From positions 1 to 55,295 of the forward strand of contig NZ_AFXZ01000037.1 in the NCBI RefSeq assembly GCF_000224335.1: a stretch of 55,295 nt of DNA. The letters are read 5' to 3'. The notes beneath the pieces were generated by a model. That model worked only from the letters and a program-made list of their open reading frames with translations. It did no database searches and was not told the DNA's origin. Each line of letters opens with the position of its first letter. Positions within the stretch are counted from its first letter, which is position 1. Shown piece after piece: positions 1 through 1,728 of the stretch. The stretch is from Bizionia argentinensis JUB59 (lineage in GTDB: Bacteria; Bacteroidota; Bacteroidia; Flavobacteriales; Flavobacteriaceae). The translations under genes and the position numbers were made by a program.

Positions 1-15
1 TACTACTACTACGTA

Positions 16-98
<83 letters not shown>

Positions 99-225: not shown

Positions 226-259
226 TTTTGCATCTTTTTACAATCTCTTCCGTCTATTA
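226..259 (+). promoter_or_regulatory. candidate ECF-sigma promoter of the Cys-rich peptide gene
   Basis: TTTTGCATC at 226-234 and CGTCTATTA at 251-259 are separated by 16 bases. A CGTC-containing -10 element with this spacing is typical of promoters read by ECF sigma factors. Transcription would start near 265 and leave a leader of about 18 bases before the ATG at 283. Since the next gene but one encodes an ECF sigma factor (SigZ), autoregulation is the natural inference, but it is not shown. Confidence 0.5.
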
Positions 260-282
260 TATGAACTTAAAACCCATATATT

Positions 283-384
283 ATGAAAAATAAAGAATGT
301 ACTTGTAACTGCTCAAGTTGTAAAAGTGGTAATTGCGCAGGATGTACTTGCGAAAATTGTACTTGTAGTAATTGCAACTGTTAA
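283..384 (+). CDS. 33-residue Cys-rich metallothionein-like peptide
   Basis: This short ORF encodes 33 residues, 11 of them cysteine (positions 6, 8, 10, 13, 18, 21, 23, 26, 28, 31, 33), mostly as CxC and CxxC pairs. The rest is small or polar, with no aromatic residue and no hydrophobic core. That composition is characteristic of metallothioneins, which bind Zn, Cu or Cd through thiolate clusters. It has no signal peptide, so it would be cytoplasmic. A candidate ECF promoter lies directly upstream, and a hairpin with a T-run separates it from sigZ 77 bases downstream. A Cys-rich RiPP precursor is an alternative, but no modifying enzyme is nearby. The peptide is seen directly; metal binding is inferred. 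Confidence 0.7.
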   Translation: MKNKECTCNCSSCKSGNCAGCTCENCTCSNCNC

Positions 385-404
385 GTTATATTAAAATAGT
401 ATTT

Positions 405-450
405 AAGCAGAACCGATTTAGTATTTTTATGCTAAAGCAGTTCTGCTTTT
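405..450 (+). terminator. hairpin with T-run between the Cys-rich peptide and sigZ
   Basis: AAGCAGAAC at 405-413 pairs perfectly with GTTCTGCTT at 440-448. A nested TTTAG/CTAAA pair extends the stem, and TTTT follows. It lies 21 bases after the peptide stop and 12 bases before the sigZ ATG. It could be a partial terminator that sets the peptide-to-sigma ratio within one transcript. Confidence 0.65.
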
Positions 451-461
451 ATAAATAGAAG

Positions 462-1001
462 ATGACGACACAAGAAATTTGGAACATCTACGCGGAAGCT
501 ATTAAACATTTTATTTTAAGTAAGGTTAAAGAACCGGCCGTTGCGGATGATTTGCTTCAGGAAACATTTATAAAAGTGCACACTAAAAAGGATACACTTA
601 AAAATGATGACAAGCTAAAACCTTGGTTATTTACTGTTGCGCGGTATACGGTTATGGATTATTTCCGAGAGCAAAATATTATAAATCAGCTTCCTGAAAC
701 CGATGTCATAGAAGATAATATTAAACACGAGCATACCGAGTATGATTGTTTGCGTGTTATTATAAAGAGTTTACCCCAAAAGTACAGAGACCCTTTGTTT
801 TTAGCTGATATACAAGGATTGAAACAGTCAGATATAGCCGTGAAACTAAACTTACCGCTTCCTACTGTAAAATCGCAAATACAACGTGCCAGAAAATTAA
901 TTACACAAGGTTTTATGGATTGTTGCGATTTAACCTTAAATGATTCTGGTTATTTAGTGGGTGAAATTAAGGATAAAAAGGATTGTAAAGTTTGTCACTA
1001 A
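462..1001 (+). CDS. sigZ: RNA polymerase ECF sigma factor SigZ
   Basis: A 179-residue ECF-type sigma-70 factor. Region 2 spans about residues 8-75 (the DDLLQETFIKV helix and the PWLFTVAR block). Region 4 spans about 100-155, with the helix-turn-helix GLKQSDIAVKLNLPLPTVKS. The protein ends in a Cys-containing tail with a CC pair at 154-155 and a final CKVCH, the SigZ hallmark; the thiols could sense metal or redox state. No anti-sigma gene follows, and the gene downstream is a helicase fragment with its own promoter. The Cys-rich peptide gene sits upstream across a hairpin, which suggests a joint thiol- or metal-stress module (inference). Confidence 0.85.
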   Translation: MTTQEIWNIYAEAIKHFILSKVKEPAVADDLLQETFIKVHTKKDTLKNDDKLKPWLFTVARYTVMDYFREQNIINQLPETDVIEDNIKHEHTEYDCLRVIIKSLPQKYRDPLFLADIQGLKQSDIAVKLNLPLPTVKSQIQRARKLITQGFMDCCDLTLNDSGYLVGEIKDKKDCKVCH

Positions 1002-1116: not shown

Positions 1117-1728
1117 ATGTCCTTTAAAAAATTCCATCCATTACTAAAAGAAGCTTTACAAGATCAAAATATGGAGGCGCCATTACCTTTTCAAAAAGAA
1201 ATTTTACCGAAATTAAAAGGTGGGATGGATGTGTACGGTGTTGCTCCAGAAGGCTCTGGGAAAACAACGGCACTTATATTGGCAATCGTTCATAAGTTGA
1301 AAGCAGAAGCTTTTGAAGATTCTCCCCGTGCTCTTATTATGGTTAAGGATAAAGAGGCTGCATTGCATTTAAAAGATCAGTTTGAGATGTTTACTAATGA
1401 AACTGATTTGCGTGTTTATTGCGCATATGATGAATATGATTTAGAAAAACAAAAGAATGAAATTTATGTGGGTGTGGATATCGTTATTGCGACGCCAAAG
1501 CGTTTGAATAAATTGTATTTTTTAAATGGTATTCATTTAGGGCAATTACAAATATTCGCTATGGAGGATGCCGAATTCTTAATGCGTAACAATTATCAGA
1601 ATGATGTGCTGCGTGTTGTAGATAGTTTAAAGAAATGCCAATATGTAATTCTAACTGAAAAAATGTCACCTAAATTAAAAAGTCTTCAAGAAAACATGAT
1701 GAGCAATGCACATATTGTTAAAGTATAA
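1117..1728 (+). CDS. DEAD-box helicase-like protein, N-terminal RecA domain only
   Basis: A 203-residue protein corresponding to the first RecA-like domain of DEAD-box RNA helicases. It has a Q-like motif (PFQKEILP, about residues 24-31), a Walker A of the form APEGSGKTT (about 43-51), a TPKR motif Ib (about 126-129) and a degenerate motif II reading EDAE instead of DEAD (about 150). The second RecA domain with the arginine fingers is absent, and no helicase sequence follows the stop. It cannot be a complete helicase, though it may bind ATP or RNA. A TAAGTTTG -7 element at 1073-1080 suggests it has its own promoter. The frame is intact and starts on ATG, so it looks like a functional stand-alone half. 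Confidence 0.75.
   Translation: MSFKKFHPLLKEALQDQNMEAPLPFQKEILPKLKGGMDVYGVAPEGSGKTTALILAIVHKLKAEAFEDSPRALIMVKDKEAALHLKDQFEMFTNETDLRVYCAYDEYDLEKQKNEIYVGVDIVIATPKRLNKLYFLNGIHLGQLQIFAMEDAEFLMRNNYQNDVLRVVDSLKKCQYVILTEKMSPKLKSLQENMMSNAHIVKV

What the first reader, a model, noticed from the sequence alone, without database searches (positions are those of the whole stretch)
226..1001. Self-contained module: ECF promoter, metallothionein-like peptide, hairpin, SigZ
A 33-residue peptide with 11 cysteines follows a CGTC-type ECF promoter and precedes sigZ across a hairpin with T-run. SigZ itself ends in a Cys-rich tail (CC, then CKVCH), and no anti-sigma factor is next to it. The arrangement suggests a thiol- or metal-stress circuit in which the sigma factor drives the peptide and read-through of the hairpin feeds back on sigZ. 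The peptide could buffer the metal or thiol signal that SigZ senses. The peptide is too short for most gene callers and would usually be missed.
Basis: partly seen in the sequence, partly recalled or inferred. Interest (0 to 1): 0.78.

Follow-up and report, generated by a model that had tools for sequence, protein, structure and literature searches.

The report
Sigma factor dedicated to cysteine-rich peptide
In many flavobacteria a tiny cysteine-packed peptide, probably a metal sponge, sits just upstream of the gene for its own transcription switch, a conserved two-gene unit that looks like a built-in response to thiol-binding metals such as arsenic.

Summary
The 33-aa, 11-Cys peptide (283-384), the promoter (229-259), the hairpin (405-448) and the SigZ-like ECF sigma (462-1001) are all there. 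Of 73 Flavobacteriaceae genomes with this sigma (395 searched), 69 carry an intact and one a broken Cys-rich peptide just upstream. All 11 Cys are invariant in 63 distinct type-A genes, with dN/dS about 0.07. A strict promoter pattern gave 41 sites in the same 395 genomes, 40 of them upstream of this operon and none in the 322 genomes without the sigma, so SigZ probably serves one target. The hairpin covaries strongly. Across the phylum promoter and sigma type change together, and 14 of 30 peptide-less SigZ loci adjoin arsenic or mercury genes; one type-B genus has acr3 directly upstream. Best reading: a single-target, self-sensing, metal(loid)-responsive sigma making a metallothionein-like peptide. 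The metal, the sensing and the hairpin's role are inferred. The tested peptides match no Pfam or NCBIfam family.

The parts
229..259 (+). SigZ-type ECF promoter: -35 TGCATC (229-234), 16-nt spacer, -10 CGTC (251-254)
   Evidence: Only perfect match in own genome; same architecture in 83 of 83 distinct peptide loci with a loose pattern; 40 of 41 strict family sites lie at this operon
283..384 (+). 33-aa, 11-Cys metallothionein-like peptide gene (type A)
   Evidence: 11 invariant Cys in 63 distinct genes with synonymous TGT/TGC changes, dN/dS about 0.07; no Pfam or NCBIfam family
405..448 (+). Conserved intercistronic hairpin followed by a short T-run (terminator- or attenuator-like)
   Evidence: Fold; z -4.55; 9 of 9 consensus pairs with compensatory change, covariation score 0.797 vs 0.275 shuffled
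417..436 (+). Apical dyad TTTAGTA-N6-TGCTAAA, more conserved in sequence than the stem below it
   Evidence: Alignment A5; the only perfect match in own genome, looser matches at background level
462..1001 (+). SigZ-like ECF sigma factor, 179 aa, no anti-sigma gene seen beside it
   Evidence: NCBIfam and Pfam; AlphaFold2 model matches ECF sigma structures
921..998 (+). C-terminal Cys tail of the sigma: C154 C155 ... C175 K V C178 H, proposed metal(loid) sensor
   Evidence: Four Cys invariant in the 87 chosen sequences of A4

Best explanation
A two-gene, self-contained stress module. A SigZ-like ECF sigma without a linked anti-sigma carries a short C-terminal tail with a CC pair and a CxxC that binds a thiophilic metal or metalloid (As(III), or Cd, Hg, Cu or Zn) and so activates the sigma (inferred). 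Active SigZ recognises TGCATC-N16-CGTC, which in these genomes is essentially one promoter, that of its own operon (supported by comparative genomics). The main product is a 33-aa peptide with 11 cysteines in CxC and CxxC spacing, a metallothionein-like chelator that soaks up the metal (inferred from composition and conservation). A conserved hairpin between the genes lets only part of the transcription run into sigZ, giving much peptide and little sigma plus positive feedback, until the peptide removes the inducer (inferred).
For: Conserved gene pair, intact in 69 of 73 genomes. In G163 both genes are broken, as expected of a functional pair. Peptide-side search: all 5 peptide hits in 345 phylum genomes, the window's own included, abut sigZ. 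Purifying selection on the peptide, all Cys invariant (dS near saturation). Promoter found only with the sigma and at one place: 40 of 41 strict sites, 0 of 322 genomes without the sigma at E up to 1e-30, reversed-pattern control 0; 1 perfect site in each of 5 Bizionia genomes with sigZ. Promoter shifts with sigma type: TGCATC/CGTC (type A, most), TGTATC/rGTC (type B, most), TGAATC/CATC (L110, L111), TGCGTC/CGTC (L131, L138, L139). Tail Cys invariant in A4. Related SigZ genes beside arsM, arsI/cadI, acr3, arsE-arsP or merTP: 14 of 30 peptide-less loci, 0 of 7 other ECF loci of the own genome; acr3 directly upstream of a type-B peptide-sigZ unit in one genus. RNA helix covariation.
Against: No expression, binding or metal data. 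Among loci that have the peptide only 2 of 88 (repeats included; L086 and L112, one genus) hold an arsenic or mercury gene, and 0 of 13 type-A loci with 5-kb flanks; the association comes mainly from relatives at roughly 25-40% identity. The tail's distal Cys pattern varies outside types A and B, and some relatives without metal genes lack CC (L126, L132, L133, L135, L136). The strict promoter pattern finds 40 of 73 sigZ genomes because it excludes variants, and it was built from these loci, so only its absence elsewhere is independent. The window's T-run is weak and no strict terminator was found.
Confidence: 0.7

Rival explanations
1. Leader-peptide attenuation: the Cys codons sense charged Cys-tRNA (trp-leader style), and the hairpin is a terminator controlling sigZ; the peptide itself has no function.
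For: Eleven Cys codons and a covarying hairpin starting 0-24 nt after the peptide stop codon in 61 loci.
Against: No antiterminator pairing: own hairpin arms pair with own upstream sequence better than swapped arms in only 27 of 61 loci, p = 0.12, mean in the wrong direction. The spacing of the 11 Cys is fixed and other positions are constrained (G in 62 of 63, dN/dS about 0.07). In L110, L111, L131 and L139 the peptide ends 0-15 nt before the chosen sigZ start, with no room for a hairpin.
Confidence: 0.07
2. The peptide is a mini anti-sigma or redox co-sensor that binds SigZ directly and releases it on metalation or oxidation, rather than a bulk chelator.
For: Fixed operon position next to the sigma, no other anti-sigma family among 18 tested neighbours, co-decay in G163.
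Against: The peptide is the first gene after SigZ's own promoter and lies ahead of a hairpin that should make it more abundant than sigma; several quite different Cys-rich peptides occur in the same place, which fits chelation better than a specific protein interface; 30 related SigZ loci have no such peptide upstream.
Confidence: 0.15
3. The peptide is a precursor of a modified metal-binding natural product (methanobactin-like).
For: Short Cys-rich gene beside an ECF sigma; that ECF sigmas occur at methanobactin loci is recalled (the listing of PMC3621798 shows only that the paper uses the term).
Against: No modification enzyme seen as shared among neighbours of 13 loci with 5-kb flanks; single loci have a radical-SAM protein (L024, opposite strand) or methyltransferases (L025) but not the others tested. 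Cys are spread over the whole chain without a leader/core layout.
Confidence: 0.03
4. The module answers oxidative or disulfide stress rather than metals; the tail CC/CxxC is a redox switch.
For: Same chemistry; MTH895/ArsE-like thioredoxins beside three relatives (L129 by family model, below its cut-off; L095 and L137 by similarity).
Against: Those thioredoxins sit with ArsP-type permeases, and the other linked genes are arsenic- or mercury-type genes.
Confidence: 0.12

Closest known systems
CorE/CorE2 metal-dependent ECF sigma factors (Myxococcus xanthus; ECF44/ECF238)
   Same: ECF sigma without linked anti-sigma and with a short C-terminal Cys-rich extension that senses metal (passages of PMC3107203 and PMC8999054).
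   Different: CorE invariant Cys follow CxxC-x7-CxC and the linker has a CXC; here CC-x19-CxxC and no CXC. CorE drives several copper genes; here apparently one peptide operon. The 21 CRD sigmas listed in PMC3107203 come from four phyla without Bacteroidota, although a later survey reports CorE or CusRS homologue hits in marine Bacteroidota (PMC10141476 passages).
SigZ (NCBIfam NF007215, TIGR02959)
   Same: Best family match over the full length; a CC pair in a relative annotated sigZ (Priestia).
   Different: Below both curated cut-offs; the Priestia SigZ tail has CC only, without CxxC, and the scan of its 5.5-kb stretch gave no Cys-rich ORF upstream (one 43-aa ORF about 1 kb downstream overlaps an annotated gene on the other strand).
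Bacterial metallothioneins (SmtA/BmtA, Pseudomonas MT, MymT)
   Same: Very short, Cys-rich, CxC and CxxC spacing (spacing of the known ones recalled).
   Different: No sequence match to any Pfam or NCBIfam family, no His in the window peptide. SmtA is paired with the repressor SmtB (PMC7387436 passages) and MymT is under RicR (PMC10141476 passage); here a dedicated sigma factor activates.
smtA-smtB autoregulated metallothionein operon
   Same: Self-contained sensor plus metallothionein unit.
   Different: Divergent genes and a repressor there; co-directional genes, an activating sigma and an intercistronic hairpin here.

Membership tests
CorE-like ECF (ECF44/ECF238) | C-terminal Cys-rich extension after sigma4, no anti-sigma gene linked | tested here: met
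   Tail after sigma4 with CC and CxxC; no anti-sigma family among 18 nearest neighbours of relatives
CorE-like ECF (ECF44/ECF238) | Four invariant tail Cys spaced CxxC-x7-CxC (PMC3107203) | tested here: not met
   Pattern here CC-x19-CxxC
CorE-like ECF (ECF44/ECF238) | CXC motif in the sigma2-sigma4 linker (PMC8999054) | tested here: not met
   Only C96 at the end of the linker
CorE-like ECF (ECF44/ECF238) | Metal-dependent activity | not testable with these tools
   Needs reporter assays
SigZ equivalog (NF007215, TIGR02959) | Score above curated cut-off | tested here: not met
   169 of 212 and 155.5 of 168.65 bits; also below cut-off
SigZ equivalog (NF007215, TIGR02959) | Best family match over full length | tested here: met
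Bacterial metallothionein (Pfam/NCBIfam families) | Match to a curated metallothionein model | tested here: not met
   No family at E up to 10 for 8 peptides in Pfam and 7 in NCBIfam; no PDB chain for profile A1
Bacterial metallothionein (functional sense) | Small, Cys-rich, conserved Cys spacing | tested here: met
   11 of 33 residues Cys, invariant spacing in 63 distinct genes
Bacterial metallothionein (functional sense) | Binds metal ions in thiolate clusters | not testable with these tools
   Needs metal titration or native mass spectrometry
Leader-peptide attenuator | Mutually exclusive antiterminator pairing | tested here: not met
   27 of 61 loci, p = 0.12

The most novel reading that the evidence does not exclude
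The SigZ clade of Bacteroidota is a phylum-wide family of self-sensing, anti-sigma-free ECF sigma factors for As(III) and other thiophilic metals, each wired to one local detoxification gene set (arsM, arsI, arsE-arsP, merTP or a Cys-rich peptide). In Flavobacteriaceae it has been reduced to the smallest possible regulon: one sigma, one promoter, one metallothionein peptide that both detoxifies and switches its own sigma off, with an RNA hairpin setting the peptide-to-sigma ratio.
Probability: 0.4. Interest if true: 0.82.

Novelty: new variant of a known kind. Interest (0 to 1): 0.72.

Why it matters
It gives a testable function to a group of sigma factors with no obvious partner, adds very short metallothionein-like peptides for which no Pfam or NCBIfam model matched, and offers a minimal autoregulated sigma module (one sigma, one promoter) with a possible product-inhibition loop. 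It would also mean that part of arsenic and soft-metal control in Bacteroidota runs through self-sensing sigma factors rather than ArsR- or MerR-type regulators. I found no paper on this in the held open-access library.

Tried and rejected
Leader-peptide attenuation: arm-swap test negative. Wider regulon in the own genome: the two looser promoter matches lie inside the recA and an M1-peptidase-like reading frame (families recalled, not searched) and are taken as chance; similar one-mismatch sites in three other Bizionia genomes look like the same recA stretch by sequence but were not checked one by one. Apical dyad as a genome-wide operator: other matches at background level. A housekeeping promoter inside the hairpin loop (TAnnTTT-like) was considered from the alignment; no consistent -33 element was seen by eye, left open. 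Rfam: no match in 97-1100. Viral contigs: only distant ECF relatives, 26-35% identity. Plasmids: 12 records, all under 60% identity. PDB sequence search with the peptide profile: nothing. AlphaFold2: pTM is 0.45, the last block of the tail has pLDDT 64, and no metal site can be read from it.

Rows dropped before counts./A4 used 87 of 112 SigZ sequences at hand; relatives with other tail patterns were left out, so Cys invariance holds for that set only. One search used 65 of 111 rows (type A thinned to 17 of 63). 93 used 37 of 43 listed intergenic sequences (repeats left out); loci with gaps outside 70-85 nt were not in it. One search counted 88 regions with repeats; recounted on distinct ones: 74 of 78 with z below -2, exceptions L068, L084, L112, L138; 5 loci with gaps under 30 nt were left out; 85 rows, L126 and L142 dropped as unrelated Cys-containing ORFs. 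Searches tested 18 neighbours, not all neighbours, of the 13 named loci.

Full report
What is there. The window begins at the end of contig C34 of a Bizionia-like genome, so nothing upstream of the CT repeat is known. From 229 on there is an ECF promoter (TGCATC, 16 nt, CGTC), a 33-codon ORF with 11 Cys (283-384), a hairpin (main stem 405-448) and a 179-aa SigZ-like ECF sigma factor (462-1001) whose tail ends MDCC...DCKVCH. The sigma is below both curated SigZ cut-offs but matches SigZ best. AlphaFold2 with an alignment of 87 sequences gives a two-domain ECF sigma with a short tail (mean pLDDT 83.8, pTM 0.45), and Foldseek finds SigH, AlgU, RpoE and SigW chains.

Is it conserved? Yes. All 13 named GTDB loci found with the sigma (48-82% identity) have a 32-34-aa, 11-Cys peptide upstream. 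In the family sample, 73 of 395 genomes (46 of 203 genera) have the sigma at E up to 1e-30. After fetching all 73 loci, 69 have an intact Cys-rich peptide on the same strand, starting 108-351 nt upstream of sigZ: 59 of type A (11 Cys, 32-36 aa) and 10 of type B (14 Cys in 37-38 aa in nine of them; L089 was read from an internal start) with a more divergent sigma. G163 has a broken peptide frame next to a sigma with two stops. L092, L095 and L097 have none. Searching from the peptide side, all 5 hits in 345 phylum genomes (one is the window) abut sigZ. In 63 distinct type-A genes all 11 Cys are invariant while TGT and TGC both occur at every Cys position; NG86 dN 0.128, dS 1.87 over 133 close pairs, dS being near saturation. 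This is a selected protein, not a chance ORF.

The promoter. All 83 distinct peptide loci (family and phylum samples) have G[ACT][AG]TC[CT]-N15-N[AG]TC[TC] in the 95 nt upstream of the peptide; 0 of the 83 reverse complements and 11 of 2608 random windows do. This pattern is loose. The strict type-A pattern TGCATCTTT-N13-CGTCTWNT was run over the 395 family genomes: 41 sites in 40 genomes, every one a sigZ genome, 40 of 41 at 206-406 nt upstream of sigZ, none in the 322 genomes without the sigma, reversed pattern 0. The pattern was derived from these loci, so its presence there is partly circular; its absence everywhere else is not. Five Bizionia genomes with sigZ have one perfect site each, and the sixth, in which no sigZ was found (88% complete), none. 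The promoter changes with the sigma: mostly TGTATC/rGTC for type B, TGAATC/CATC for L110 and L111, TGCGTC/CGTC in L131, L138 and L139 with unrelated Cys-rich peptides. This is what direct recognition predicts.

The hairpin. Between peptide and sigma, 74 of 78 distinct intergenic regions of 30 nt or more fold better than dinucleotide shuffles by more than 2 SD (83 of 88 with repeats). On 37 aligned sequences all 9 consensus pairs show compensatory change; covariation score 0.797 against 0.275 in shuffles and at most 0.194 in slid versions. The lower stem covaries while the apical dyad TTTAGTA-N6-TACTAAA is kept in sequence among close relatives. No antiterminator partner was found. A partial terminator that keeps sigma low and peptide high is the simplest reading, but the window's T-run is short and a strict scan found no terminator.

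What it senses. The type-A loci have no such metal gene in their flanks (0 of 13 with 5-kb flanks), and 18 nearest neighbours tested in Pfam gave neither an anti-sigma nor a shared partner. Relatives do. Of 30 peptide-less SigZ loci in the samples (each about 1.5 kb to either side), 14 hold an arsenic or mercury gene: ArsM (above cut-off in L116, L122 and L125; L092 is the same genome as L122), ArsI/CadI (above cut-off in L120, L121, L124, L127, L128 and L130; partial and below it in L134), ACR3 (L121), MTH895/ArsE-like thioredoxin with ArsP-type permease (L129; L095 and L137 by similarity), MerTP with an ArsR-type regulator (L123), and an ArsC-like fragment with an aquaporin (L120). Several have a SigZ-type promoter directly before the metal gene (L092, L116, L121, L125, and L095 before the thioredoxin); how often this looser pattern occurs by chance there was not measured. 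Other ECF loci of the own genome: 0 of 7; loci with a peptide: 2 of 88, repeats included. Those two are the bridge: one genus (L086, L112) in which ACR3 (L086: 441 bits, cut-off 283) lies directly upstream of a type-B promoter-peptide-sigZ unit. In the sigma tree type A is one side of a branch (SH-aLRT 88), types A and B are neighbours (83), and the metal-linked sigmas sit in several neighbouring clades. A thiophilic metal(loid) is therefore the likeliest signal; which one is open.

Against. Some peptide-less relatives lack metal neighbours or lack the CC pair, one sits by a PhzF gene, and several neighbours matched no family. There is no expression or binding evidence at all.

Compared with the known. 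It works like CorE (metal read by a C-terminal Cys extension, no anti-sigma; passages of PMC3107203 and PMC8999054), but fails CorE's tail pattern and CXC linker, so it is not a member. The peptide works like a bacterial metallothionein but matches no curated family. I found no paper linking SigZ with arsenic or metallothionein (open-access library only; two papers hold both words 'SigZ' and 'arsenic', seen as listings, a Bacillus genome report and a cyanotoxin review). The 2021 ECF classification paper was not held, so which ECF group this is could not be checked.

Noticed in passing
L092, L095, L116, L120, L121, L123-L125, L127-L130, L134, L137: SigZ-like ECF genes of other Bacteroidota adjoin arsM, arsI/cadI, acr3, arsE-arsP or merTP genes, several with a SigZ-type promoter in front of the metal gene.
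   Followed up: partly
L119, just downstream of a second SigZ-type promoter right after sigZ: Another Cys-rich peptide ORF (43 aa, MDTTNQNNCTCNSNCNC...) placed downstream rather than upstream of sigZ.
   Followed up: no
L159 (Klebsiella plasmid): A distant SigZ-like ECF gene between an ars operon and a permease plus thioredoxin-family gene.
   Followed up: no
L074 (G163): Peptide frame and sigma are both broken in the same genome while the promoter remains: co-decay of the pair.
   Followed up: partly
window 417-436: Apical dyad of the hairpin (TTTAGTA-N6-TACTAAA in relatives) is more conserved than the stem that carries it; no other perfect copy in the genome. Role unknown.
   Followed up: partly
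window 1117-1728: A 203-aa protein matching only the N-terminal half of DEAD-box helicases (positions 9-207 of 434 in RhlE1), with relatives near sigZ in five other loci: a half-helicase.
   Followed up: no
window 1-96: Long CT repeat at the very end of the contig; perhaps a low-complexity assembly end, not seen in the upstream 450 nt of relatives.
   Followed up: no
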